A DNA stretch of 37,233 nucleotides from a virus. This document shows positions 72 through 37,224 of the stretch, piece after piece. The position numbers were made by a program, and so were the translations under genes. The stretch is taken from positions 1 through 37,233 of IMG/VR virus record IMGVR_UViG_3300025000_000253; one strand, written 5' to 3'. Below the pieces are notes generated by a model. That model was given only the letters and a program-made list of their open reading frames with translations, was not told the origin of the DNA and searched no databases. Each line of letters starts with the position of its first letter. The first letter of the stretch is position 1.

Positions 72-200
72 TGATGTTAAATCCAGTTCTATATGACAGT
101 GGTTTGTCCAATAAACTATGACAGGATTTCGCAATAATGGATAAACCTGAAGTAAAATCATAGGAAACCCGTTTACCGGATGGAAATGTTTAAAATCCAG
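72..200. repeat. Left phage end with transposase-site-like repeats
   Basis: The sequence TGATGTTAAATCCA at 72-85 is the counterpart of TGGTGTACAATCCA read inward from the right end (37224-37211): 11 of 14 bases match and both begin TG, as Mu-family ends do. Further copies of the core follow: TGTCCA at 105-110 (25 bp from the first TCCA) and AAAATCCA at 192-199. TATGACAG occurs at 92-99 and 117-124, also 25 bp apart, and its complement ACTGTCA lies between two of the right-end repeats. In Mu, three transposase sites sit at each end. The exact outer base is uncertain because no target duplication is visible. Confidence 0.6.
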
Positions 201-306: not shown

Positions 307-555
307 TAGAAGACGACTTACCATCATTATCCCCCAGCACACCAAGGCGAATCCGATGCCAGCCAGATCAGCCGCGATATCAGTCCAATCGAAGCCAGTC
401 TTCCCGATGTCGTGGACCTCCTTGCCGATGCCGAAAAGCGCAGCCAACGAAGCCGCAACCATGGCCCACCAAAGTCTCCATTGCGCGGCCGCCAGAAAAA
501 TCACGAAAATAGCGAAGCTGACGATCGCATGAATGATATGGTCGCCTCTAATCAT
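286..555 (-). CDS. Small membrane protein with a YfiM/DUF2279-like motif
   Basis: 89 residues with two or three hydrophobic segments (about 8-24, 28-42 and 62-82). Between them is a conserved-looking pattern: an N-terminal HxxxS, then GxxKExxD, FDW and DxxAD, ending in a Gly-containing membrane segment. That pattern is the hallmark of the YfiM/DUF2279-type small membrane proteins often found in phages. Its role is not known; a holin-like or lysis-accessory job is possible because it is a small late membrane protein. The start ATG overlaps the previous gene's stop (ATGA), so the two are translationally coupled. It is the last gene of the minus-strand late operon, and its 3' end carries one arm of an inverted repeat. 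Confidence 0.7.
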   Translation of the reverse strand: MIRGDHIIHAIVSFAIFVIFLAAAQWRLWWAMVAASLAALFGIGKEVHDIGKTGFDWTDIAADLAGIGFALVCWGIMMVSRLLFRNPVL

Positions 556-977
556 AGTTTTCCGCCAGCAACTTCTGCAGCCTTTCTATTTCTCTCCATC
601 TCACCCGGGTACAGCTCCTCCAGTTTTGCCTGAACTTCAGGTAGTTCCCGAACAGCCTTAAGCGTCCGGTAATCAGTGCTCCGAAGATACTGACTTGCCT
701 CCTCTTGCTGTTTGAGCTTTTGATGAAAGTTCCTGTCGACAATCAGATCCGTCAGAATTGATTGGAAGTTGTCCTGAACGAAGGCCTCGGCTTCCTCGAG
801 CGAGCTGACCGGAAGCTTGTCTGTATGAAAAACTTCCACTTCGTGTTCGAGGCGTTCCGTTCCATCATCTTCGAATCGTGAAACAGCGACCGGATTTCCA
901 AAAATGGTGACTGTGTAGACGCCTTCGGCGAGCTTGTTGATCTCAAAGGGCCGATAAGTTTGCATGGTGATTTTCAT
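552..977 (-). CDS. Unrecognised late protein downstream of the DGR RT
   Basis: 141 residues, acidic, no signal peptide or membrane segment. The N-terminal half looks like a small beta domain; the C-terminal half is helical and charged, with an LRSTDYRTLKAVREL stretch. Such STDY-containing tails are familiar to me from small proteins encoded near phage tail fibres, which is my best guess at its context. The start has a strong AAGGAG five bases upstream and lies inside the last codons of the reverse transcriptase (35-base overlap). It occupies a place where some DGRs carry accessory genes, but it does not resemble the small helical Avd family: it is not all-helical and not strongly basic. Function unknown. 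Confidence 0.65.
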   Translation of the reverse strand: MKITMQTYRPFEINKLAEGVYTVTIFGNPVAVSRFEDDGTERLEHEVEVFHTDKLPVSSLEEAEAFVQDNFQSILTDLIVDRNFHQKLKQQEEASQYLRSTDYRTLKAVRELPEVQAKLEELYPGEMERNRKAAEVAGGKL

Positions 978-2067
978 TCGCGATCTCCTTTATGTTGTAT
1001 CTTCTAATATCTGTTAAAATTCTCGAATATAGCCTGCCGCAGTTCGAGTGCTGAACAAGCCCTTTCCTACTTAAGACACTTCTAGCCTGGCGTCGGCTAG
1101 GTCTTCCCTTGGTCTCGATCCTGCCGAGTTGTCTTATAATCGAAAGGTAAATGCCGCCCCGCAATTCCTGGAAGCCGGACCGATAGGTCTTGTATCCCAA
1201 CATGTCGATCGGAGCATCTTTCCACCTCCATACCCGCAGAGCTCCGGATCCGTCATGCTTTATGGTCAGCCCGTGCAATGCGCATTGCTCCTTTAACTCC
1301 AAAGCGAACTTTTCGGCTTTCCGCTTCGAAGCGAAGAACGCCACCCCATCGTCCATATATTGTAGGTGATGTGACGTCTTCGGATTCTCGGTAATCCAAT
1401 GGCCGATCGGCCCGAATATCATATTGGCCGCCCATTGAGAAAGTGGGGAGCCTATCACTAGCCCAACTCGCCTGCGGTAGAGAAATACCCACCAAAGTTG
1501 GATTACCCTCTTGTCCTTTATCCTACGCTTCAGCCACCTGATGAAGGCGATGATATCGACAGAATCGTAGTACTTTTTAAGATCCCACTTCACCACGTAT
1601 TTTACCGAACTACCACCAATTCTTGCCCAGTGTTTCAGGCATTTCCTGCCGAATTCTATCCCGCGCTTTTCAATCGATGCGATGGTGTGTCTGATCAAAT
1701 ATCCATCATGGTGGATAACCTTCGCATTCTCTCCAGTACCAACTGTTTCGTAAAAACCAATCATATAAGGCTTCATCGAAACGATGAGCATGTGCATGAT
1801 CAATTTGTCGCGTACGGATGGAACATTTATATTACGGCTCTTACCGGAATACTTGTCGACATGGACAAAAGTCCTCACGCCCTGGTGTTCCAAATCTCCC
1901 GAACGCAGGCTGTCTGCCAGGGCAAATAGATTCACGTCATCCTTATAGAACTCCTTACCTCTGCTACTCCTCTGGTTCTTGAAACAGACATGCCTCGCAG
2001 CCAAAGCAGTTTCATGACTGCAAACATCATCGATCGTCACATTCCAAAGTTTCGTGTTGCTACCCAT
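943..2067 (-). CDS. DGR reverse transcriptase
   Basis: 374-residue reverse transcriptase of the diversity-generating retroelement type; it copies the template-repeat RNA into cDNA while misincorporating at adenines. Visible RT motifs: KWDLKKYYDSVD with the first catalytic Asp at about 162, IGSPLSQ at about 205-211, and QYMDD with the catalytic Asp pair at about 239-240. IGSPLSQ is the form of RT domain 4 usual for DGR enzymes, where group II intron RTs have QGxxxSP. There is no maturase or HNH domain, against a group II intron origin. The ATG at 2067 is preceded by AAGGA six to seven bases upstream. The template repeat lies about 110 bases upstream on the same strand and the target gene just before it, the standard DGR order. 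No avd gene is next to it. Confidence 0.95.
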   Translation of the reverse strand: MGSNTKLWNVTIDDVCSHETALAARHVCFKNQRSSRGKEFYKDDVNLFALADSLRSGDLEHQGVRTFVHVDKYSGKSRNINVPSVRDKLIMHMLIVSMKPYMIGFYETVGTGENAKVIHHDGYLIRHTIASIEKRGIEFGRKCLKHWARIGGSSVKYVVKWDLKKYYDSVDIIAFIRWLKRRIKDKRVIQLWWVFLYRRRVGLVIGSPLSQWAANMIFGPIGHWITENPKTSHHLQYMDDGVAFFASKRKAEKFALELKEQCALHGLTIKHDGSGALRVWRWKDAPIDMLGYKTYRSGFQELRGGIYLSIIRQLGRIETKGRPSRRQARSVLSRKGLVQHSNCGRLYSRILTDIRRYNIKEIANENHHANLSAL

Positions 2068-2082
2068 AAAGCATCCTTATGC

Positions 2083-2136: not shown

Positions 2137-2150
2137 CCGCCTTTCGGCAG
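2137..2150 (-). other. GAAA-tetraloop hairpin next to the template-closing helix
   Basis: On the minus strand CTGCC-GAAA-GGCGG forms a five-pair stem (one G-U) capped by a GNRA tetraloop. Its first base is also the last base of the 11-base arm that pairs across the template, so the two helices could stack end to end. Confidence 0.5.
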
Positions 2151-2306
2151 GGATATGCAGATTTTTATCGTAAGGATGTCGCGGTCGCCCCTGTTGATGT
2201 TCGCGTTGGACGGACTGTTGTTCCAGTTCTCGTAGAACGGACCGTTATTCGAGCCGTTGTTCCAGTTACCACCACGGAAACAACGAAGCAACCACCTGCA
2301 TATCCC
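2150..2306. repeat. 11-bp perfect inverted repeat enclosing the DGR template
   Basis: GGGATATGCAG at 2150-2160 and CTGCATATCCC at 2296-2306 are exact inverted copies. They lie 14 and 12 bases outside the two edges of the 109-bp template repeat. The variable repeat has no such flanks, so the arms belong to the template locus only. Confidence 0.65.
2175..2283 (-). repeat. DGR template repeat (TR)
   Basis: 109 bp, aligned without gaps to the variable repeat at 2409-2517. There are 15 mismatches. On the coding (minus) strand each is an A in this copy: eight A to G, six A to T, one A to C. No mismatch falls on a template C, G or T. If translated, the template would read as a C-type-lectin-like stretch rich in Asn (for example RGGNWNNGSNNGPFYENW), the usual DGR design in which AAC/AAT codons mark the variable residues. 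The GC-rich common 3' end (CAGGGGCGACCGCG) is the likely counterpart of the IMH* element. Confidence 0.95.
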
Positions 2307-2320
2307 AATTTTCCAATTTT

Positions 2321-2342
2321 TAAAAATCCTGCTCCGCAGGAA
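2321..2342 (-). terminator. Rho-independent terminator after the DGR target gene
   Basis: On the minus strand CCTGC-GGA-GCAGG (2340-2328, with one more flanking T-A pair) is followed by ATTTTTA. It lies 37 bases past the target gene's stop and before the template repeat. It could therefore separate tail-gene transcription from the template RNA, which would then need its own promoter or read-through. Confidence 0.65.
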
Positions 2343-2378
2343 GCAGAGGGCTTGCGCAGCCCCCTGCACCCCTGCGAC

Positions 2379-4331
2379 CTAAGCCGCCTGCAATACAGGC
2401 TCCAATATGATGCCGCGGTCGCCCCTGTAGAAGTGCGCGTAGGACGGACTGCTGCTCCAGACCTCGCAGAACGGACCGCCATTCGAGCCGTAGTACCAGC
2501 TACCACCACGGAAACAAACGTACGTCCCAGTTCTTGCATCGTCAGCGTAGTAGATGACATCGCCAATCGAGTTGCCGCCGACAGCGCTCACCAGCTGCAT
2601 CTGTCTGAGACCGAGCGTGACGATCTTAAAGTCCGATATCCATCCATAAGTCGCCGCACCGGTACTGAATTCACCGCAGTCTACATATCCGGCAACTTCA
2701 GGATCTGAGACGCCTGCCGATGTAAGCGGGTTGAAGTTGACGAAGAAGTGCTTGGCCTTCCGCATCTTTCCCCGCTCGACCTCGAAGACGTTCGCGTACG
2801 GATCCACCAATCCGTAAACGTAGACATGGGACCTTGCCTCAGCTCCCCATTGCGATATCCATCCGCATCCGGTGCCGATCTGTAGGAGATTGTCGATTGA
2901 ATCCGATTGTCCCCAAGTGACGATCCATCCTCCGACAGGAGCGCTGAAGGCTGCTCCATCCACAGTGATGATCATGGATCCCGGAACGCTTGCCGTGTCT
3001 ATCTCCACTATCTTTCGGTTCGCCGCGTATGTGTTGTTCGAATACGAGCTGCCGATCTGTACATCCATTCCCACCTGGAAAGGCTGCCCGCTACTCGCGA
3101 TCGTCACCGAGTTTCCCCCTGTCGTCGCTGCAGTCAACTGGTATGATGCCGAGGATGAATAAGGCATCGACGAACTGATACCCTGGCCAACCGCCGCCTG
3201 TATATCGAAGGATCCGAACTCTATGATGAGCAAAATTCTCCATACGTCGGTCGTAGTGAAATGCCCGCCAATCCATCCGGTATCGACATCTAGTGAGGCG
3301 TAGTGTGTGTCGAATGCGAGTGTCGAGGTGACAGTCAATGGAACCGTGTCGGGTTTCGAACACACCTTGCCATCCTTGTCCATTCCGGTCTTATACGAGA
3401 GGATCACGATATAGGGCCGGATGGTTCCGTCTTCCCTCTGGAAGGCCGGAGCGATATTGTATCCAGGGAGCTTCACCGCCGAGACGTCCCATTCCTTGAA
3501 CGCGAATCCCTCGCCGTCTGTGCCGCTCCATATCCTCATATAAAAAGGAAAGAACATCGACCCGACATTGTACTTGGAGGATCCGTCAGGATTCTTCTCG
3601 ATCGCCATGGCTGAGAAATTATCGTCGCCCTGTATTGCCAACACATTCTTCACCTTGTCCACCAGGCAAAGGCGGATATCCGACCATGGCCGTACTTTCA
3701 GGAAATCGCTGACCGTAGGATTGAACGACCCGTTGCTCCGCGCCGAAGTCATCGTCGCAGCCGCCCCAGTCCTGGACAATACTCCATCGCTCCGACGACG
3801 CAAGCCGTAGTACGAAGATATCTGTACACTTGCAGCTGCCGCCTCTGCAGCAGTCTGGGCAAACTCAGCTGCTTCCCGATGAGTTTCCGCCAAAGCCGCA
3901 GCCGCTTCCGCTTCGGCCTTGATGGATGTATAACTGGCGAGATATTGGTCGAGAACGGTAGGAGTGAAGTCCAGAGTCGCAGGATTCAAAGTCTGTTCGA
4001 TATAGATAGAGACTGGCACGGATTGCCAGACGACTTCTCCTATGAGTGCCCTTACCTGGATGTACATCCTGCCACTACGACTGGTGGCAGCGCCCTTTGG
4101 TGTCCAGTCAATAAATAGCTGGTCTCCATCCGCAGTTACGGTCAGGATATCAATATCTCCAGTACCATCGGAGAGTTCATACCTGCACTGCCATGTCGCC
4201 GCACTCAAGTTAAACCCATTGTAAACAGCAGGCAGGTGGAACCTGATGGTATCGCAAGCATCTCCCACCACCATGAGCTTTTTTATACCCGCTGTATCGA
4301 TTGTCTTTTCAGTGATTTCAACTGTTTTCAT
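2379..4331 (-). CDS. DGR variable protein: tail/receptor-binding protein with C-type-lectin end
   Basis: 650 residues from an ATG placed six bases after GGAGG; an ATG two codons earlier is too close to that site. The first 120 or so residues look like the BppU-type N-terminal domain of baseplate proteins. An Ala/Glu-rich helical stretch (about 140-170) follows, then a long beta-rich middle. The C-terminus carries the CFRGGSWYYGSNGGPF and SPSYAHFYRGDRG elements typical of DGR C-type-lectin-fold variable domains. The variable repeat covers about residues 605-641. Compared with the template, 13 codons differ, mostly Asn turned into Ser, Tyr, Gly, Val or His. It probably sits at the tail tip and contacts the host surface; the exact receptor cannot be told. 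Confidence 0.9.
   Translation of the reverse strand: MKTVEITEKTIDTAGIKKLMVVGDACDTIRFHLPAVYNGFNLSAATWQCRYELSDGTGDIDILTVTADGDQLFIDWTPKGAATSRSGRMYIQVRALIGEVVWQSVPVSIYIEQTLNPATLDFTPTVLDQYLASYTSIKAEAEAAAALAETHREAAEFAQTAAEAAAASVQISSYYGLRRRSDGVLSRTGAAATMTSARSNGSFNPTVSDFLKVRPWSDIRLCLVDKVKNVLAIQGDDNFSAMAIEKNPDGSSKYNVGSMFFPFYMRIWSGTDGEGFAFKEWDVSAVKLPGYNIAPAFQREDGTIRPYIVILSYKTGMDKDGKVCSKPDTVPLTVTSTLAFDTHYASLDVDTGWIGGHFTTTDVWRILLIIEFGSFDIQAAVGQGISSSMPYSSSASYQLTAATTGGNSVTIASSGQPFQVGMDVQIGSSYSNNTYAANRKIVEIDTASVPGSMIITVDGAAFSAPVGGWIVTWGQSDSIDNLLQIGTGCGWISQWGAEARSHVYVYGLVDPYANVFEVERGKMRKAKHFFVNFNPLTSAGVSDPEVAGYVDCGEFSTGAATYGWISDFKIVTLGLRQMQLVSAVGGNSIGDVIYYADDARTGTYVCFRGGSWYYGSNGGPFCEVWSSSPSYAHFYRGDRGIILEPVLQAA
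2386..2400 (-). other. Hairpin just downstream of the variable repeat
   Basis: On the minus strand GCCTG-TATTG-CAGGC is a perfect five-pair stem with a five-base loop, starting eight bases after the variable repeat and lying in the last codons of the target gene. In BPP-1 a hairpin or cruciform in this place promotes target recognition, so this is a good candidate for the same element. Confidence 0.55.
2409..2517 (-). repeat. DGR variable repeat (VR)
   Basis: 109-bp target copy inside the 3' end of the tail-protein gene; equal in length to the template at 2175-2283. All 15 differences map to template adenines. The conserved GC-rich end (2409-2430) fits the IMH element that marks where mutagenic homing starts. 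Confidence 0.95.
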
Positions 4332-4872
4332 AATCATCCTCCAAATCCCAAATTCTTCCTATCCGAAGATCAGTCAGCAAATCATTTAATTCCTCGATCG
4401 TCTTACCCTCGCATTGTTGCGGCAGATTCCTGAGCCAATTACGGCGATTGACAAATGGTGTGATATCGGCACCATCGGCCATGGCATTTTGGAGATCGAT
4501 ATCATTCTCAGCGAACCAGTGTTCTCTCCAACTCCTAATCCATTTTTGAGCAATCACCACTGCCTTGATTTGGTTTATCTGTGGCGTAAAACTTCTTCTA
4601 CTCATTCCTGCATGTCCTTCTTTCTCGCTAATATCCGCAAAACTAGAGGAAGCAGAGCCATACCCATCTGGATCGCCAAAGGATGCCGGAACTTCCCATG
4701 CTTCACTGAAAGTCATGTCTTGCGGTATGGTCGAATCTTCCACGAGCCAGAAAGGTAGTCCTTTAGGAGTGATTCTTGTTGCTACCGAAAACTCGCCATA
4801 GACATCCACAAACTGGCGGGCTGGAAAAGTCATCACGATACTGTCGTCCGGATTCTTATAAATGATCATCAT
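4318..4872 (-). CDS. Unrecognised tail-fibre-region protein
   Basis: 184 residues from ATG 4872, chosen because AAGG lies five bases upstream; a GTG two codons earlier and an ATG one codon later are alternatives. No signal peptide or membrane segment. The N-terminal half contains YKNPDDSIVMTFPA, which looks like a short beta-rich binding domain. The C-terminal half is helical, with a Trp-rich AQKWIRSWREHWF stretch. It lies between the gpJ-like tip protein and the DGR target and overlaps both at their ends, so it probably joins, folds or caps the variable fibre. It is not a known DGR accessory protein. Function not recognised. Confidence 0.7.
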   Translation of the reverse strand: MMIIYKNPDDSIVMTFPARQFVDVYGEFSVATRITPKGLPFWLVEDSTIPQDMTFSEAWEVPASFGDPDGYGSASSSFADISEKEGHAGMSRRSFTPQINQIKAVVIAQKWIRSWREHWFAENDIDLQNAMADGADITPFVNRRNWLRNLPQQCEGKTIEELNDLLTDLRIGRIWDLEDDYENS

Positions 4873-4874
4873 AT

Positions 4875-7800
4875 TCACCTTATTACCAAGACATTCACTT
4901 CTGAGCTGTCGTAGTAGCCATTGACCGAAACCGTGATGTCCACATAATCGACCGTCTTGGTATCATCAAACCTATATGCAACAGAGACGTTGTTATCGTT
5001 TGTGTTCACATCCCGAGCAATAGCAGCAAGAGCGTAATTCGTATCTGGCATAGGAGGGGAAAAGTGTATCCTGTAGACACCTGTGTAGATCCTGGTTATA
5101 GCAGAAACTCCTGCACCTGCCCGTATCGATCCGTTGTTGAAGTTCACCCACGCCCTGCAGGCAAATCCTTCCATACCGCCTACGTGCAAAGACTCCATAT
5201 ACATGTTGGTCACGTATTCCGAACGGATGGGATGGTCGGGTTCACCGATATCAATCGAACCGTTCTTTGGCACGAGGTTTCCTATCAAAACCGCCTCGGT
5301 CTCGACCAATACGAATTGTGCCTCGGCGATATACCAACCCACGAATGAGGTCCCATCGACCGAAGAGCCAGCGATGAATGAATCGAAAGAGTTGTCGGAA
5401 TAATAGACACGGGCACCGGCTCCATCATTCATCACCGCGTGGATTGCTTCATCGACTTTCAGCCCATAGGATATCCTGCTGACTGGCAATCCATAATCAG
5501 GACTCCCAGCATCAGTGACGATCGAATAGTCGACAGGGATCAACACCCCTTCCGGCAATGCGGAGATCACATCTATGAAAGTGTTGGCGAGTGCGTACTC
5601 CAGATGGTCGTCGGAGTCGAAACTGGAAGGCGATGTAAGGACGAAATGCGCCTCTGTCAGATAGTCCGTATTGGGTACGACATCCCAGTCCAGTGTGTCG
5701 TTGTACAGCAGGATGGTATTCTGCAATGCCCGCCAATTGATCGTAAGGGTTGCCGATCCCCCGATTGTCCCGTATTGGTATTTCTCATACCTGTCGATCT
5801 GCACATGGATGGAGGACCCTTTCTGCACGTCGTATATCACGTTGTATGTATAGGCAGAGCTGTTCGCTGTCTTGTCGTACTTGAGTATCCCGTCGATATA
5901 AACCCTGATCCTCACCGGGGATATCGCCGAGTGCTGTACCCATTGCCCCTCCCAATATCCTGGATTCAAGGGATCGTAAGGAACAGTCGGAACCCAAACC
6001 TGCTCGAATGTCGTCCATGTGTAATATTCGGGAGAGAGCGTTCCGTTGAACCGCATCTTACCCTGTGCGGGAGAGGTGTGGTAGATATTGTTCGTCGCCT
6101 GGCTAGTTGAATTGTATGTGGTCGCCACCTGCAGGTTGGTCTCGTAGTCAGAGGCAATAATCTTCTTCGCAGACAGATAACTGGTTCCTCCAACGGACAA
6201 CGCGATCGGTTGGAAGGTAGGGGTATTTTCCGTGATGTTCAGGGCACTGAAAAAGAGGGCCCTGTTCCATTTGGACATTTGTGCAAAGATTGTCGGACCG
6301 CCTATCTGGACAGTATTGCGGGTTTCGAGAGCAGGATGGATAAGGTTTCCGTGCACAGTCACATCAACGAGTACCCCTCCATGTGCCCTGAGGCGTCCTT
6401 TTCGCCCTGTGCCAACGACAGGGTTGTCGAGTTTGTAGCCACTGATTGGTTTTCCCGACTCATCGACAGCAAAGTCCTCTGACCCTATCTCACCATCCTT
6501 GGACATAACGATCCGGTTGGCCCCAAGGGTCTGCGTATAGACCGATGCGGCAAAAAATGTCGGTTCGTCCTCAGCGATCTTCAACGCATCGTGGAGACCT
6601 TCCGATGTGACATGCGCATCGGTTTCATCTATCCAGGATCCAGATGCCAGTTCATAATAATGGCCCCTAAGATACCCTGGGATACCACCATCCTGACCTA
6701 CATAGAGAAAGAAATCTCCGTCGATCAAGGGCTCTCCATTGTATTCGGTCGGCAATTCCACCAGCGACCCCAGATATTTCGGGGCGGGTAGTCCATCCTT
6801 TACAACAACAATCCCCGCGGAATCCTTGTAGACTGAGTCCTCGAATTCAACCGAGCAATCGATACGCACTGATTCGAGTCCCGCCTGAAGGGATCCGACA
6901 TTCACGATCTTGCTGAACGGATCCCCGCTTGAAGGGTTCTCGAGGGTTACAGCCCCGGCAGGAACGACTTCCCAAGTCAACCCTGTCTCAGGCAAAGGAA
7001 GGTGCTGCATGAGTGCCGAGACTACGATGTTTCCGCTCCTGATCACGCCCCTGCTGGACTTGGTGATCGTTGTGGATGTCGAGCTCAATAAGATGGTCTT
7101 CGCATCCTCACCTGTCAATCCGGGTCTGCCCGGAGGCGGGAGGATCCCCACAGGTTGGCGTACGCCGGTACCGGGAGATACCAGACCTTCGCGGTACCGG
7201 GAAACTCCGGAATTGTATGGCGGAATGATTCCCTCTGCAGAGTATATCTCTTCGGCATAATCGACGGCACTGATCTTGCAATGCCTCAGTCCGTCAGGTT
7301 GTATCTTCTCGATCAGAACCTTGTGTGTCACCGTATCCAGGAGACCGAAGGCTGCAAGGGCACCCTCTTCGAGTGGATGATCGAGAGACTCGGTCAGTGT
7401 CAGCCATTTTGTGGTCTTTCCCGTGTTGTTTACCTGGCATTTAACAATGCCCACAGATGTCCTGATTTCCAATCCATAAGTCTGTCCGACCTCCATGGTC
7501 ACAGGAGTATCGAGCTTTACCCTTGTGGTCAAACCTGCGACATCGCGGGAGATGGTTGTGATCCTGCCTTCGCCCAATCCGAAGAATACTCCGTCGTTTG
7601 CGATCAATACCACATCCCCGGGAACGCATAGCAAGCCTTCGATATCGGCATTCCAGGAATAGCTGCGGACCCTGGCATGCAGTGCCATCAAGACATACGC
7701 CGCAAGCTTTGAGACTTGGGTCGCGTCGGTGACCAGCGGAATCGATATCTCTTCAGTCGGTCCATCTTGAGGCGTGTCGTATACGATGGATCCTTCCGAA

Positions 7801-9353
7801 GTGAAAGAGATCGTCCGCTCGACCTCCACGTAATCCAGATCCTTATTGATGAACTTGACTACCAGGTTGGATGGCTTTGTGCTGTAGTCGCGATCCATGG
7901 AGAATCCCCAGGAGTTGCGGGGAGTGAACATCTGGGCTACATAAACATTGGACTGGTCGATCCGGATCCCGAACAGTCCTCCGTGCTGGCGCTTCTCGGC
8001 ACGTCCTGTCGCCAATATCTGGTCGGCGATCGAATCGATTGTGATATCTCCCGAGACCAATGCCCCGATCGTATAGCCTTGCGCCTCGCAGAAGGCATGC
8101 CATGCCTCGAAATCTTCCCATACGATATCCCCGTCTTCCATCGGTCGGGGGTTCACTTTCGGGTCTGTCAGGATATATAGGAGCGCACTTGCGGGATTCT
8201 CCGTTTCGGCAACCACCCAGGAATCGGGTCCGGTTCCGACTCCAGAGTAATCGCGATATCTCGCATGGGCGATCGCGTTCACCCGCTCCAGGACTCCATT
8301 GATCTGGTTGGTTGCCTGAACCTTGATCGCACTCAGGCGGTACCGGGAGGCATTAACGATCGGCAATGTGGATCCGCTGACGGGATCCTCGGTGAAGCTG
8401 TCCATCATATCCAGATACAGAGTATCCACGTCGGAAGCGCTGGAGCCTTCGTCTGTCGATCGCCATACCTTCAGATCGTATGACTTGTCCGCAGATCCGG
8501 AGACCATGACCTGGACCATTTCCCGGTATTCGTCGGTATTGAGTGATCTGGAGATTATGGTGATATCCGACCATACGCCTCCTGCCGGTCTCCACTGGTA
8601 CGAAATGGAGAATTGGCTGGCCACCCGATCGTTGTCGTCATCGTATTTATAGATCCCGTTGGGAGCCATGATGCCGAACCGCAACGATACTGTTCCGCTG
8701 GGGGTCGAACGCTCCACATACACCGGATCCTCGCCACTCTTTTTCACCAGCTTGATGCCGATATAGGTCTCTATACACCGGGAAGGGTAGATGGATCCTA
8801 CCGTGTCCTCGATGCTGACTCCGGAGAGCTTGCTCAACAACGTGTCGCCGACCTTTATGTCGGCATTCGCTATGACGGTATTGTCGTAACCCCAGCAGAA
8901 TAGCTGGTGCAGGAATTGCTGGTTTCCCGAATACGAGCTGTACGGCAGAGAAGCCACATCCGCGAAAATCCTATGGGTGCCCAGAAGTATCGGCACCTTT
9001 TGTCCAGGTCTTGCCTGGTTGCTTCCACCACGCAGGGAGCTGGCAGTCTGCACCTTCGAATAGTCGGGGATGTTTTCCCGCATCAGATGCGAGACGAGCG
9101 CCCCGACAGCCGCGCCTACCACTGCTGCGATCACAATATATGCGACAATCGACCATCCGCTTGGAGCTATCTGGATGACAACAGGCCCCTTGAGCCTATG
9201 CTTCAGGCCTACGGGCTTGCCGTCGTCGAATACCTGGCAGGTGCACGGCTCGATGCCGAGGCTCTTAAGCAACTTCAAGGAGGTGATGCCCTTTACGGCT
9301 TTGGTGTCTGTGTAATCTCCGGAAAACGGATTCTTGAGGATGCGCACTCTCAT
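4875..9353 (-). CDS. gpJ-like tail tip / central fibre protein
   Basis: 1492 residues, the second largest tail gene, in the position of lambda gpJ after the NlpC/P60 tail peptidase. The first 60 residues resemble the small beta-grasp domain found in gpI-like tail proteins. A strongly hydrophobic Gly/Ala segment follows (about 66-90), as in tail-tip proteins with a fused gpI-type part. Then comes the Arg/Pro-rich GQKVPILLGTHRIFAD region typical of the start of gpJ. The middle has fibronectin-like beta stretches; the C-terminal third is beta-rich and probably exposed. It should form the tail tip that holds the adsorption fibres and starts host-envelope penetration. The ribosome site is weak (AGG close to the ATG). 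It overlaps the next gene by a few bases. Confidence 0.85.
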   Translation of the reverse strand: MRVRILKNPFSGDYTDTKAVKGITSLKLLKSLGIEPCTCQVFDDGKPVGLKHRLKGPVVIQIAPSGWSIVAYIVIAAVVGAAVGALVSHLMRENIPDYSKVQTASSLRGGSNQARPGQKVPILLGTHRIFADVASLPYSSYSGNQQFLHQLFCWGYDNTVIANADIKVGDTLLSKLSGVSIEDTVGSIYPSRCIETYIGIKLVKKSGEDPVYVERSTPSGTVSLRFGIMAPNGIYKYDDDNDRVASQFSISYQWRPAGGVWSDITIISRSLNTDEYREMVQVMVSGSADKSYDLKVWRSTDEGSSASDVDTLYLDMMDSFTEDPVSGSTLPIVNASRYRLSAIKVQATNQINGVLERVNAIAHARYRDYSGVGTGPDSWVVAETENPASALLYILTDPKVNPRPMEDGDIVWEDFEAWHAFCEAQGYTIGALVSGDITIDSIADQILATGRAEKRQHGGLFGIRIDQSNVYVAQMFTPRNSWGFSMDRDYSTKPSNLVVKFINKDLDYVEVERTISFTSEGSIVYDTPQDGPTEEISIPLVTDATQVSKLAAYVLMALHARVRSYSWNADIEGLLCVPGDVVLIANDGVFFGLGEGRITTISRDVAGLTTRVKLDTPVTMEVGQTYGLEIRTSVGIVKCQVNNTGKTTKWLTLTESLDHPLEEGALAAFGLLDTVTHKVLIEKIQPDGLRHCKISAVDYAEEIYSAEGIIPPYNSGVSRYREGLVSPGTGVRQPVGILPPPGRPGLTGEDAKTILLSSTSTTITKSSRGVIRSGNIVVSALMQHLPLPETGLTWEVVPAGAVTLENPSSGDPFSKIVNVGSLQAGLESVRIDCSVEFEDSVYKDSAGIVVVKDGLPAPKYLGSLVELPTEYNGEPLIDGDFFLYVGQDGGIPGYLRGHYYELASGSWIDETDAHVTSEGLHDALKIAEDEPTFFAASVYTQTLGANRIVMSKDGEIGSEDFAVDESGKPISGYKLDNPVVGTGRKGRLRAHGGVLVDVTVHGNLIHPALETRNTVQIGGPTIFAQMSKWNRALFFSALNITENTPTFQPIALSVGGTSYLSAKKIIASDYETNLQVATTYNSTSQATNNIYHTSPAQGKMRFNGTLSPEYYTWTTFEQVWVPTVPYDPLNPGYWEGQWVQHSAISPVRIRVYIDGILKYDKTANSSAYTYNVIYDVQKGSSIHVQIDRYEKYQYGTIGGSATLTINWRALQNTILLYNDTLDWDVVPNTDYLTEAHFVLTSPSSFDSDDHLEYALANTFIDVISALPEGVLIPVDYSIVTDAGSPDYGLPVSRISYGLKVDEAIHAVMNDGAGARVYYSDNSFDSFIAGSSVDGTSFVGWYIAEAQFVLVETEAVLIGNLVPKNGSIDIGEPDHPIRSEYVTNMYMESLHVGGMEGFACRAWVNFNNGSIRAGAGVSAITRIYTGVYRIHFSPPMPDTNYALAAIARDVNTNDNNVSVAYRFDDTKTVDYVDITVSVNGYYDSSEVNVLVIR

Positions 9354-26540: not shown

Positions 26541-27170
26541 CTAACGCCCCCAGGTGTACTTGCCTTCCGATCTCATGTAGTCGAAGGACACGCCTACATG
26601 AACACTGGAATTGATGCTGGAAAAGTCTTCGACCCAATCTGAGCTGTCCCCGGAGCCTGTCATCACAATGGCGTGTTGCGCAAAGCTGTATACCGATTCA
26701 GCTCCAACCGCCACCGACATCGTCCTTGTGATCGGAACCAATACGCCGATAGCTACCCCGAGACCCACATCGATGGAGATCAGGCTGAGGTACTCATTGG
26801 GAGCAAAGGCGTTCATCATCCACGCAGCTCCAACTCCTGCATATAAGGTAGTGTTGTCTATCCTTGTGAATCGGGCAAGTCCAACCAAGCAGCTAACACT
26901 AGTTGCATAATCCCATTCGTCCAATTCGCTGCCATTGAACTCCACCTTGATCGGGAATTGAAGGTCTCCCATCACAAAGGAACCCCATGGGTCCCAGTTT
27001 GAAGAGGCTACTCCATAAGACAGTCCGAGGGTTTGCATTTGTATGGGATAGCCATCGGAGTTTTGCGTGTATAGCTCCCATTGGGGAGCAAATATCGCAG
27101 ATCCTGAGTATGCGGCCAGACTTGTCACGGCAAAAGCAACAACCAAAGCAGTCACAACGATTCTCTTCAT
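26541..27170 (-). CDS. Secreted beta-barrel-like protein, probable lysogenic conversion gene
   Basis: 209 residues with a clear signal peptide (MKRIVVTALVVAFAVTSLAA; cleavage near 19-24). The mature part is rich in alternating hydrophobic strands and Gly/Ser/Tyr (ATSVSCLVGLARFTRID, TLYAGVGAAWMM, ISIDVGLGVAIGVLVPI, VHVGVSFDYM), as in small outer-membrane beta barrels. The end, GKYTWGR, is only loosely like a barrel end. It begins 34 bases after the repressor stop, on the same strand, with no terminator between, so it is likely made in the lysogen. Known prophage genes in this place change the host surface or block superinfection. The family is not recognised. Confidence 0.72.
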   Translation of the reverse strand: MKRIVVTALVVAFAVTSLAAYSGSAIFAPQWELYTQNSDGYPIQMQTLGLSYGVASSNWDPWGSFVMGDLQFPIKVEFNGSELDEWDYATSVSCLVGLARFTRIDNTTLYAGVGAAWMMNAFAPNEYLSLISIDVGLGVAIGVLVPITRTMSVAVGAESVYSFAQHAIVMTGSGDSSDWVEDFSSINSSVHVGVSFDYMRSEGKYTWGR

Positions 27171-30039: not shown

Positions 30040-30326
30040 GAGTAGTAGGAGCAACAAGGGACATGTGGCTCGAACCGAGAGCCATGGAGGCGAGGCCGGC
30101 ATACATCGACCTGCGCAAGCAGAAGATGACGGAAGGATGCAGGAAACTGCTCAATCGGATCCCGTTCTACCCCGATGAGGTTTCGGCACTGCAGCTGATC
30201 GATATCACAGGACTGTCCTCGGACCGCATCGAGTCCTATCTGAAGAACTTGGGCACCAGGGGCCTGGTCTGCGAGGACCAGAGGAGATACTGCCGGTTGA
30301 GGGAGGATTTGAGCAATGTGGACTGA
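30036..30326 (+). CDS. Small winged-helix protein before the transposase
   Basis: 96 residues. The ATG overlaps the preceding stop (ATGA) with GGGAGG upstream. Middle and end fit a winged helix: LIDITGLSSDRIESYLKNLG, then RGLVCEDQRRYCRLREDL as the wing. Overlaps the transposase start by 11 bases, so the two are translationally coupled. Likely a DNA-binding helper or regulator of transposition. Confidence 0.7.
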   Translation: MRVVGATRDMWLEPRAMEARPAYIDLRKQKMTEGCRKLLNRIPFYPDEVSALQLIDITGLSSDRIESYLKNLGTRGLVCEDQRRYCRLREDLSNVD

Positions 30327-32427
30327 TGTGAAAACCATTGTCGGAGCCACAGGCCTTTCCTCCAGGGCGGTTCAGATCCGCGTGAAGAAGGAATGCCAGT
30401 GGCGTATGAAGAACGGCAAGCAGATGGAGATATATGTCCCGTCTTTGCCGAAGGAATGGCAGGAGAAGGTGCTCTCTCCCGGAGCGCTCCTTCCTGCCGA
30501 TCGGCGGCTTCCCGAGGTCATATCGAGGGACGCTGCATTGGTTCGGAAGGTCGCCCCATCCGTGTTGGGGAAGAAGGCCACCGAGGCGCAGAAGAGGCGG
30601 AGCGAGATGCTAAGGCAACTCAAGAACCGTCCGGCCGGTACCAAGAAGAGCGAATGGATCCGCAGTGTATCTACGCTTTATGGAGTATCGGAGAGCACGT
30701 TGTACCGGCTTTCTGGTGCGGACCAGAAGTTCGGCGATATCGGCAAGGTCCGCGAGGTCGGCAAGTCGACCGCGTTCGATCCCGAGGCAATCGAGTATAT
30801 CCAGGGATTTTGGCTTCAGGCGATCCGGGAATCCGGGGAGTGCAGCAAGACAACCGCATGGAAGCAGCTGCAGGTGATGGCGAAGCGCAAGGGCTGGAAC
30901 ATCGGTTCCCGATCGAGCGCTTTCAACCTCCTGGGTGAAGTGGATCCCTTGATGGTCGCCTTCGCCCGTGGTGGGAATCGGGCATTGGACAACTACTTCT
31001 ATATCACCCGCGATTGCGATGCGCTCCAGCCCATGCAGATTGTCATCGGCGACCAGCATATTTTCGACTGGTGGGTGGCCGACTACAACCAGGGCATCAT
31101 CTCCCGTCCGGAGTGTTACCTCTGGCTCGACATGTGCACGAAGCTGGTCTATGGGATCGCCTTCGATCGCAAGTATTCGTCCGATACGGTCAAGGAATCC
31201 TTGCGTCTCGGATTGTACCGGTTCGGGGCATTCGATTGCACCTACAACGACAACGGATCGTCGGAATGTAGCCGGGCGATAAACAGCATTGTCGACGACC
31301 TGATACAGCTGCAGATGGACGCCCGTGACGTCTCCGATTTGTACAAGACACCCGAAGGCATCTACGTGGTCGTCAATGAGGAGGGAGAAGTCCTGGATAG
31401 CGCAAGGAGTCCGGAGGAATGGCGCCGAAAGCACCGAAGGATATTCGCCAATGTGAAGAACGCGAAGGCCAAGGACATCGAGCGCTTCTTCAGGACTTTG
31501 GAAGGCCGACTCTCCGCAAGGTTGCTTCCTGGCCGGGTTGCGACCCCTGGAGCCGTTGCAGCTGTCGATGAGGTTGAGCGCAAGCGACTGGAGGGCCAGA
31601 AGGCCCGTGGTGAGCTTCTGACGATCGAGCAGTTCATGTTGGTCGTCCTGGAAGAGTTGGATGCGTATGAGCAAGAATTCCATTCGACGTTGCAGATGAC
31701 ACCACGCGAGAAGATCCTGCAGAAGGTCGCCTCCGGATGGAAGCCGAAATACTACGAGCATGAGGTTGTGGATCTGGTGCTCTTCGACCGGGTCAAGCGC
31801 AAAGTCGAACGTGGTCGGGTCCTGATCGACAACACCTGGTTCATTGGAGAGGAATTGGCTTCCAGATCGGGACGGCTCTCCGATGCAGGACTATGGAAGC
31901 ATGACGGCTCGACCGTTGAAGTGAGGTACAACAGGCATGATTTGAGCCACGCCTACGCGATTGTTGATGGTGCCATCAAGCCACTGAAGGCGGTGACCTC
32001 GGTCACGATGCTGGATGATGAGGCGATGACCGAGGCGATCAGCGCGAAGAGACGCCAGATGGCGGCTGTAAGGGAAGCCTTCGGTCGTCTCACTGCTCCG
32101 ATCGAAGGCCTGACCATGAAGTCGGATATCGCCCCGAAGGTACGTGCGGCACAGAAGGCACAGAAGGCCTTGCCGGAAACCACGGACATCAATCTGCCGG
32201 AAGAGGTCGCAAGGCGGGTCGAGAGCGCGACAACAAGGAATATATTGCCATTCCATACATCGGACCACGACCGGTACCGGTGGTGCCAGGACATGATAAT
32301 CGCCGGAAGGATAGACGACCTTTCGGCAAGCGACAGGACTTTCATCCGACGCTACGAGGCATCGGACGATTACAAGGCTGCCGAGAACTATTGGGAGAAC
32401 TATAGGAAATTAGGAGGAAACGCATGA
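30316..32427 (+). CDS. A: Mu-type DDE transposase (MuA-like)
   Basis: 703 residues; MuA is 663. The N-terminal winged-helix domain (about 1-55, TDVKTIVGATGLSSRAVQIR) is the enhancer-binding type. End-binding HTH domains follow (about 110-210, WIRSVSTLYGVSESTLYRL). The catalytic domain has D246 in QIVIGDQHIFDWW, D312 in CTYNDNGSSE and E389 in AKAKDIERFFRTLEG, the DDE triad in MuA-like context. A basic beta-barrel and C-terminal region (about 480-700) would contact the ATPase. It cuts and joins phage ends for integration and replication. Coupled to the ATPase by a four-base overlap. Confidence 0.95.
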   Translation: MWTDVKTIVGATGLSSRAVQIRVKKECQWRMKNGKQMEIYVPSLPKEWQEKVLSPGALLPADRRLPEVISRDAALVRKVAPSVLGKKATEAQKRRSEMLRQLKNRPAGTKKSEWIRSVSTLYGVSESTLYRLSGADQKFGDIGKVREVGKSTAFDPEAIEYIQGFWLQAIRESGECSKTTAWKQLQVMAKRKGWNIGSRSSAFNLLGEVDPLMVAFARGGNRALDNYFYITRDCDALQPMQIVIGDQHIFDWWVADYNQGIISRPECYLWLDMCTKLVYGIAFDRKYSSDTVKESLRLGLYRFGAFDCTYNDNGSSECSRAINSIVDDLIQLQMDARDVSDLYKTPEGIYVVVNEEGEVLDSARSPEEWRRKHRRIFANVKNAKAKDIERFFRTLEGRLSARLLPGRVATPGAVAAVDEVERKRLEGQKARGELLTIEQFMLVVLEELDAYEQEFHSTLQMTPREKILQKVASGWKPKYYEHEVVDLVLFDRVKRKVERGRVLIDNTWFIGEELASRSGRLSDAGLWKHDGSTVEVRYNRHDLSHAYAIVDGAIKPLKAVTSVTMLDDEAMTEAISAKRRQMAAVREAFGRLTAPIEGLTMKSDIAPKVRAAQKAQKALPETTDINLPEEVARRVESATTRNILPFHTSDHDRYRWCQDMIIAGRIDDLSASDRTFIRRYEASDDYKAAENYWENYRKLGGNA

Positions 32428-33353
32428 TCACATTGACAGAAGCTTTGGACAAGACAGGCATGACCCTGCAAGCGGCAGGAGCCCTTGTCGGACTGGGGAA
32501 GTCCGCGGTATCGCGGATCAAGAGCCACGATTACCCGAACTGGACGAACTATGAGATCAGCATCATCCGCAAGATGGTCGACGGAGGGATGCTGGACAAG
32601 GAACACCTTGGAGCCGAGGGGGATATCGAACCGGGCAACCTGAAGCTCGATCCGACAACCTTTATCCCTACCATAAACGTCGTGGAGACCAATAATCTGG
32701 CCAACGGATTGCTCGATCCTACGACGACATTGAACAGCAGCATCGGTATGATCGTCGGCTCGGCTGGATACGGCAAGACGACAGCGATCAAGCACTTCGC
32801 TTCCGAAAGTCCGCAGGCAGCATACATCTTATATATGGAAGGCTACACGCTGACCATGCTGCTCAAGACGATTTCCATCGAATTAACAGGCACATGCCAG
32901 CGGTATTTTGACCAGAACCTGGCATTGATCAAGGAAGCCACCAGCACCTACCGCAAACTGGTCATCATCGATGAGGCCGACCGCATGCCGATCAGGCTGC
33001 TTGAGGCGCTACGCAACATCAATGAATTCTGTGGCGCCCCTTTGCTCCTGGTGGGGGAAAAAGCCCTCCAGGCTAAGTTGGAGGCCGTGCCAAGGCTCAA
33101 GAGTCGCATCCGTAAGCCGGAGATCGCCTTTGTGCCCATCAACGTCACCGATGTCGCCACCTTCTACCAGATGGCCGTCGGTATCGATATCAGCGAACAG
33201 AAGGAAGTCTGCAGACAGCTGTTGAGGTGGGCCGGAAACGACTTCCGCAACCTGGTGAACGATGCCCAGCACATCGTCTCGTCCATGAACACATCCGGTG
33301 TGTACATCCTTTCGGAGGAAGTGCTGAATGCCTACAAACCACTCAGATCGTAA
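32424..33353 (+). CDS. B: Transposition ATPase (MuB-like)
   Basis: 309 residues. N-terminal HTH (LDKTGMTLQAAGALVGLGKS, about 9-28). AAA+ domain with Walker A GSAGYGKTT at about 112-120 and Walker B LVIIDEADRM at about 179-188, then a sensor-1-like LLLVGEKAL stretch. This is the target-selecting ATPase that activates the transposase and marks DNA for insertion. The N-terminal HTH and gene order match MuB and its Mu-like relatives. Confidence 0.93.
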   Translation: MITLTEALDKTGMTLQAAGALVGLGKSAVSRIKSHDYPNWTNYEISIIRKMVDGGMLDKEHLGAEGDIEPGNLKLDPTTFIPTINVVETNNLANGLLDPTTTLNSSIGMIVGSAGYGKTTAIKHFASESPQAAYILYMEGYTLTMLLKTISIELTGTCQRYFDQNLALIKEATSTYRKLVIIDEADRMPIRLLEALRNINEFCGAPLLLVGEKALQAKLEAVPRLKSRIRKPEIAFVPINVTDVATFYQMAVGIDISEQKEVCRQLLRWAGNDFRNLVNDAQHIVSSMNTSGVYILSEEVLNAYKPLRS

Positions 33354-37166: not shown

Positions 37167-37224
37167 TTGGATTTTACTGTCAAAACGTTGGATTTTCTTG
37201 CAAAATTTTTTGGATTGTACACCA
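37167..37224. repeat. Right phage end with three transposase-site-like repeats
   Basis: TTGGATTTT at 37167-37175, TTGGATTTT at 37188-37196 and TTGGATTGT at 37210-37218 are direct repeats 21 and 22 bp apart, about the size of MuA sites. The outer one read inward gives TGGTGTACAATCCA, matching the left end. ACTGTCA at 37176-37182 pairs with the left-end TGACAG copies. The likely last phage base is 37224 (CA end). The bases after it (37225-37233) should be host DNA. Confidence 0.65.

What the first reader, a model, noticed from the sequence alone, without database searches (positions are those of the whole stretch)
2175..4331. Complete diversity-generating retroelement in a Mu-like siphophage
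The 109-bp template and variable repeats align without gaps and differ at 15 positions, all at template adenines (eight to G, six to T, one to C), out of about 30 adenines by my count. An RT with IGSPLSQ and YMDD lies directly downstream and the target is a tail-tip-region protein with a C-type-lectin-like end. DGRs in transposable phages are known (the Bacteroides Hankyphage), but this gene set, with SPP1-like portal and gpJ-type tail, is a different setting.
Basis: partly seen in the sequence, partly recalled or inferred. Interest (0 to 1): 0.85.

Follow-up and report, generated by a model that had tools for sequence, protein, structure and literature searches.

The report
Mutation-making cassette in transposing phage
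This phage carries an intact-looking diversity-generating retroelement, a cassette that rewrites the tip of its own tail protein at template adenines; this is a known kind of system in a known kind of phage, but its template RNA appears to be held in a conserved knot that also covers the start site of the reverse-transcriptase gene.

Summary
On the minus strand, VR 2409-2517 and TR 2175-2283 are 109 bp, ungapped, with 15 differences, all at template adenines (8 G, 6 T, 1 C; 30 adenines). The RT (943-2067) is DGR-type: its best PDB match is the BPP-1 DGR RT, and 66 of the 80 best-scoring viral loci found by RT similarity also carry an adenine-biased repeat pair. The target's predicted fold matches the DGR variable proteins TaqVP (Z 23.1) and BPP-1 Mtd (Z 11.9). 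The phage has MuA/MuB, an SPP1-type portal and a gpJ tail like RcapMu. DGRs in Mu-like phages are already described (Hankyphage, Mushu, Desulfovibrio piger and Thermus aquaticus prophages), so this is a new member of a known kind. No Avd or canonical GRNA-loop hairpin was detected.

Going further: two long-range RNA helices, one bracketing TR (11 bp), one joining the TR 3' junction to the RT's Shine-Dalgarno (8 bp), cross as a pseudoknot. Both are enriched across about 70 related loci (dereplicated, at least 8 bp: P1 14/35 against 3% control, P2 10/35 against 2%). Known spacer RNAs (Rfam RT-18, Phage_DGR) do not include these TR-spanning helices and do not match this window. Activity was not testable.

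The parts
2409..2517 (-). Variable repeat (VR), 3' end of the target gene, target residues 607-643
2175..2283 (-). Template repeat (TR), 30 adenines, 15 substituted in VR
943..2067 (-). Reverse transcriptase, 374 aa; IGSPLSQ and YMDD motifs, DGR clade
2379..4337 (-). DGR target: tail protein, 652 aa; N-terminal beta domain, coiled coil, C-terminal fold like TaqVP and Mtd
2296..2306 (-). P1 5' arm GGGATATGCAG, 12 nt upstream of TR
   Evidence: predicted pairing
2150..2160 (-). P1 3' arm CTGCATATCCC, 14 nt after TR; 11 perfect pairs with 2296-2306
   Evidence: predicted pairing
2171..2178 (-). P2 5' arm CATCCTTA at the TR 3' junction
   Evidence: predicted pairing
2072..2079 (-). P2 3' arm TAAGGATG, containing the Shine-Dalgarno AAGGA of the RT gene (start codon at 2067)
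   Evidence: predicted pairing
2386..2400 (-). 5-bp hairpin GCCTG-TATTG-CAGGC, 8 nt after VR; weak candidate for the post-VR DNA hairpin
2343..2367 (-). 10-bp stem (one G-T) with 5-nt loop between the target stop codon and TR; candidate cruciform, adjacent to terminator-like sites at 2327-2348
552..977 (-). Small ORF overlapping the RT 3' end; probably a tail gene, not an Avd
4875..9353 (-). gpJ-type tail-tip protein, related to those of transposable siphophages (RcapMu and others)
30316..32427 (+). MuA-type transposase
32424..33353 (+). MuB-type transposition ATPase

Best explanation
A diversity-generating retroelement carried by a transposable, probably siphoviral, phage. The RT copies the TR RNA into cDNA with misincorporation opposite adenines; the cDNA replaces VR at the end of a tail protein whose C-terminal C-type-lectin-like domain probably contacts the host, so the phage varies its receptor binding. 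Shown here: repeats, adenine bias, RT family, predicted target fold, phage type. Inferred: activity, direction of transfer and receptor role. Also inferred, with comparative support: the template RNA folds as a pseudoknot in which helix P1 clamps the two flanks of TR and helix P2 pairs the TR 3' junction with the spacer just before the RT start codon, presumably setting where cDNA synthesis starts (P2) and stops (P1).
For: 15/15 mismatches at TR adenines, P 1.5e-10. RT: PHROG 1423 RT family E 1e-46, best PDB match BPP-1 DGR RT 8ub7 E 1.5e-9 against group II intron RT 9e-5, motifs shared with other DGR RTs; 66 of 80 viral loci found with the RT profile have an adenine-biased TR/VR. Target: AlphaFold model from 26 window and locus sequences (mean pLDDT 71.9) matches TaqVP at Z 23.1 over 273 residues and Mtd at Z 11.9, well above unrelated rows. 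MuA/MuB, SPP1 portal, gpJ. RNA helices: P1 and P2 enriched against cross-locus control pairs, nearly flat in VR-flank and shifted controls.
Against: No Avd found, and Avd is essential in BPP-1 (PMC12875486); the clade relatives also lack a detectable Avd, so this is not decisive. No canonical post-VR hairpin. The only second copy, L002, has an identical VR, so no variation in a population was seen. The window RT is a long branch, and the window spacer does not match the covariance model of its relatives or any Rfam family.
Confidence: 0.95

Rival explanations
1. A decayed, inactive DGR: the repeats are a fossil of past activity and the cassette no longer works because Avd or the post-VR hairpin is missing.
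For: No Avd-like ORF by an HMM of four Avds; no GRNA-loop hairpin; VR identical in L002.
Against: RT open and with all catalytic motifs; no TR/VR difference outside adenines, so no sign of neutral decay; the same Avd-less layout is common in related loci; related Avd-less DGR phages are described in Faecalibacterium (PMC5883640).
Confidence: 0.12
2. The RT belongs to another retroelement (group II intron, retron or DRT) and the repeats are an unrelated duplication.
For: NCBIfam's best hit is the group II intron RT/maturase model, far below its cut-off (63.9 of 300 bits); PADLOC RT models match weakly.
Against: Adenine-only substitution, best PDB match to BPP-1 DGR RT, relatives carry DGR repeats, target fold is that of DGR variable proteins.
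Confidence: 0.01
3. The P1/P2 helices are chance or trivial pairings and the template RNA has no such fold.
For: The window spacer fails the covariance model of its relatives; the stretch from the TR end to the RT start does not fold unusually well alone (z -0.63); Hankyphage shows no such helices; at 45% RT clustering only P1 remains significant.
Against: Cross-locus controls: P1 of at least 11 bp occurs in 0.1% of control pairs; P1 and P2 enrichment persists at 60% dereplication (p 1e-12 and 6e-9); negative controls are nearly flat; L021 and L026 keep P1 through double changes.
Confidence: 0.2

Closest known systems
Bordetella phage BPP-1 DGR
   Same: TR/VR with adenine bias, RT family, tail target with C-type-lectin-like end, order target-TR-RT; an internal spacer adenine primes cDNA at the TR 3' junction (PMC12875486)
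   Different: BPP-1 has avd between VR and TR, a tRNA-type attachment site, a GAAA-loop hairpin and no clear ribosome-binding site before brt; its spacer is Rfam Phage_DGR, which the window does not match
Hankyphage (Bacteroides transposable phage) DGR
   Same: MuA/MuB phage with DGR, 14 mismatches all at adenines
   Different: RT on another branch; spacer is Rfam RT-3; no P1/P2 by the test used
Faecalibacterium phage Mushu DGR
   Same: Mu-type transposition plus DGR
   Different: Myovirus with tail sheath, Avd present, VR lies after the RT in a Hoc-like capsid gene
Thermus aquaticus prophage DGR (TaqVP)
   Same: Closest solved structure to the target (Z 23.1); prophage with many Mu-like genes (PMC4605624)
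   Different: Has avd (PMC6328139)
Epona, Arawn, LBR48 and archaeal virus vir215 DGRs
   Same: Nearest named RT relatives by BLAST or profile; compact order target-TR-RT-small ORF, no Avd annotated; Epona has a 12-bp P1
   Different: No Mu-type transposase in the regions read; several clade members, including LBR48, carry the Rfam RT-18 spacer RNA, the window does not

Membership tests
Diversity-generating retroelement | TR/VR pair differing (almost) only at TR adenines | tested here: met
Diversity-generating retroelement | RT of the DGR clade with intact catalytic YxDD and SQ motif | tested here: met
Diversity-generating retroelement | VR at the 3' end of a target gene with C-type-lectin (or Ig) fold | tested here: met
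   predicted model
Diversity-generating retroelement | IMH at the VR 3' end (G+C-rich run, then TR/VR divergence) | tested here: inconclusive
   VR ends in a G+C-rich run (CAGGGGCGACCGCGGC) by eye; IMH function cannot be read from sequence
Diversity-generating retroelement | Post-VR DNA hairpin, 7-10 bp stem with 4-nt GRNA loop, 4-34 bp after VR (phage DGRs) | tested here: inconclusive
   only a 5-bp stem at 8 nt and a 10-bp stem with 5-nt loop at about 41 nt, neither with a GRNA loop; definition from PMC3240598
Diversity-generating retroelement | Accessory protein Avd (frequent, not universal) | tested here: inconclusive
   no match by Pfam, PHROGs, NCBIfam for the ORFs next to the RT, or by a 4-sequence Avd HMM over all ORFs; the small HMM may miss divergent Avds
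Diversity-generating retroelement | Mutagenic retrohoming activity | not testable with these tools
   no reads; sole second contig L002 is identical
Rfam DGR spacer RNAs (RT-18 RF03021, Phage_DGR RF03022, RT-3 RF03068) | Match to the covariance model | tested here: not met
   no match at E up to 1 on 1950-2450, while five, one and one of ten control loci match RT-18, Phage_DGR and RT-3
Transposable (Mu-like) phage | MuA-type transposase with MuB-type ATPase | tested here: met
Transposable (Mu-like) phage | TG...CA terminal inverted ends with variable host DNA outside | tested here: inconclusive
   TGTTAAATCCA at 75 and TGGATTGTACA ending at 37221, read by eye; no second insertion site to confirm
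Siphovirus morphology | Long tape measure and gpJ-type tip, no sheath or baseplate | tested here: inconclusive
   gpJ domains and SPP1 portal, gpJ related to transposable siphophages; not every ORF was searched for a sheath and no microscopy

The most novel reading that the evidence does not exclude
In this Avd-less DGR clade the cDNA-priming arm of the template RNA is the ribosome-binding site of the RT gene: when the TR 3' junction pairs with it (P2) RT translation is shut and priming is set up, and when ribosomes hold it RT is made, so RT synthesis and mutagenic reverse transcription exclude one another on one RNA.
Probability: 0.25. Interest if true: 0.65.

Novelty: new member of a known kind. 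Interest (0 to 1): 0.42.

Why it matters
The cassette itself extends a known list: another transposable phage with a DGR, another TaqVP/Mtd-like target, with an RT far from characterised ones (best identity 33% in the tree set). The comparative RNA result matters more: in an Avd-less group of DGRs, long-range helices that span the template are conserved although their sequences change, and they place the RT start site next to or within the predicted priming helix. If right, it gives a simple, testable rule for where cDNA starts and stops in DGRs outside the Bordetella model, and a possible built-in limit on mutagenesis. The BPP-1 RNA structure paper, which may already describe equivalents, was not in the library, so novelty of the helices is claimed with caution.

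Tried and rejected
(1) ORF 552-977, which overlaps the RT 3' end, as a new accessory protein: 64 of 75 loci have an ORF there (median start 31 nt before the RT stop), but members match Pfam Phage_tail_APC and tail-fibre-assembly PHROGs, so it is more likely an ordinary tail gene; the window ORF matches only one relative, weakly (L030, E 7.5e-5), and not a profile of the others. An earlier profile comparison was a self-match and is disregarded. (2) Population test of VR: only one other contig (L002, identical) was found in viral contigs by RT, by target, by gpJ and by a TR pattern with adenines masked. (3) DGR in the nearest transposase relatives: the target and RT were not found in the L003 contig and the RT was not found in the L004 genome, but the L003 contig is partial and there was no positive control. 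(4) Covariance model of the relatives' spacer (R1): 59 matches in 89 sources, including LBR48, Arawn and cr50_1, but not the window. (5) Rfam on the window: nothing. (6) A sigma-70 promoter before TR: none by consensus. (7) Host assignment: not reached. (8) Primary BPP-1 RNA papers were not held.

Full report
Observation. On the minus strand the 109-bp VR (2409-2517) and TR (2175-2283) align without gaps and differ at 15 positions, every one an adenine in TR (8 to G, 6 to T, 1 to C); TR has 30 adenines. The chance of all 15 falling on adenines if sites were random is 1.5e-10. The same detector finds the annotated BPP-1 repeats at their exact coordinates. All adenines are at codon positions 1 and 2, mostly in AAC codons, and none can yield a stop, the design described for DGRs (PMC6328139).

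Reverse transcriptase. The 374-aa RT (943-2067) matches a PHROG RT family (E 1e-46); the best solved relative is the BPP-1 DGR RT. Catalytic and SQ motifs are shared with nine other DGR RTs. A profile of six RTs pulled 80 loci from viral contigs (the best 80 of at least 553); 66 have a TR/VR pair with at least 75% of mismatches at adenines. In a tree the window RT falls with such loci (nearest L027, 33% identity), but on a very long branch, so its exact place is unsure.

Target. The 652-aa protein follows the gpJ-type gene and an ORF of unknown function. Relatives of it are targets in many of the fetched DGR loci. An AlphaFold model (26 sequences, mean pLDDT 71.9; ten-residue blocks from 601 to 650 at 73-88) matches TaqVP, a DGR variable protein, at Z 23.1 over 273 residues, and the four BPP-1 Mtd variants at Z 11.6-11.9; the next rows are at 9 or below and cover only a middle domain. 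BFVD matches are mostly tail (collar) fibre proteins, some with BppU-type N-termini.

Phage. MuA and MuB homologues, SPP1-type portal, gpJ domains and a tail-tip protein related to those of transposable siphophages such as RcapMu (that these are transposable siphophages is general knowledge). Terminal TG...CA inverted sequences at about 75 and 37221 (read by eye) suggest the record holds nearly the whole phage with short host remnants. DGRs in Mu-like phages are on record: Hankyphage (PMC6199706; activity PMC12135933), Mushu (PMC5883640), D. piger prophages (PMC12724379) and the T. aquaticus prophage (PMC4605624).

What is missing. No Avd by Pfam, PHROGs or NCBIfam for the neighbouring ORFs, or by a small Avd HMM over the whole window; none of the 66 viral relatives shows one by that HMM either. 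No canonical GRNA-loop hairpin follows VR (definition PMC3240598); two other hairpins do. The small ORF overlapping the RT is probably a tail-assembly gene.

Template RNA. A perfect 11-bp inverted repeat flanks TR (2296-2306 with 2150-2160; P1) and an 8-bp one joins the TR 3' junction (2171-2178) to 2072-2079 (P2), which contains the RT Shine-Dalgarno and ends four bases before the ATG at 2067. P1 and P2 cross, so together they would form a pseudoknot. To test this I measured the longest Watson-Crick helix in the same positions at 70 DGR loci and in mismatched pairs of loci. P1 of at least 8 bp within 60 nt: 43% against 4.5%; P2 of at least 8 bp: 29% against 2.9%. After dereplication at 60% RT identity: P1 14/35 against 3.1% (p 1e-12), P2 10/35 against 2.4% (p 6e-9); at 45% only 11 representatives remain and P2 is no longer significant. 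VR flanks, a spacer segment further downstream and an internal TR segment give little or no excess. In loci with P2 of at least 7 bp the P2 3' arm ends a median 8.5 nt before the RT start codon. These p values treat dereplicated loci as independent, which is approximate. Seven of ten control loci carry Rfam RT-18, Phage_DGR or RT-3; those matches begin after TR, so they do not include P1's upstream arm or the P2 5' arm. The window matches none of them, nor a model built here from 18 relatives, so its spacer is divergent beyond the P1/P2 geometry.

Mechanism. In BPP-1 an internal spacer adenine primes cDNA at the TR 3' junction and an upstream motif stops it (PMC12875486). P2 would position the spacer at the junction, and P1 would hold, and possibly stop synthesis at, the upstream side. 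That the P2 arm is also the RT ribosome-binding site is a direct sequence observation; that it makes translation and priming exclusive is a hypothesis.

Verdict. Real DGR, new member of a known kind. The RNA architecture is the part worth following, with its novelty unresolved because the BPP-1 RNA structure papers were not available.

Noticed in passing
L018-L097 (80 viral contigs): Conserved spacer RNA between TR and RT with strongly covarying hairpins (13 of 13 predicted pairs show double changes, on an alignment fitted to the model); the 3' part is Rfam RT-18 in several loci, but the P1 and P2 long-range helices spanning TR are outside that model.
   Followed up: partly
window 75-85 and 37211-37221: Inverted TG...CA ends (TGTTAAATCCA / TGGATTGTACA), suggesting the record is a near-complete transposable phage genome with short host flanks.
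   Followed up: partly
window 26541-27170: ORF with a signal-peptide-like start, resembling an outer-membrane protein by eye, next to the repressor; possible lysogenic-conversion or exclusion gene and a hint of a host with an outer membrane. No convincing match in NCBIfam or PADLOC.
   Followed up: no
L003, L004: Transposition modules 52-64% identical to this phage in another viral contig and in a MAG labelled Clostridiales; no DGR found there.
   Followed up: partly
L002 (IMGVR_UViG_3300025009_002380): 7,931 bp identical to the window including VR, so the same VR variant was assembled in a second record.
   Followed up: yes
L008 (BPP-1), about 15-25 nt upstream of TR and the spacer after TR: By eye, BPP-1 has a near-complementary pair AAAGGGCAG / CTGGCCTTT flanking TR (8 of 9), a possible P1 counterpart that the perfect-match test missed.
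   Followed up: no
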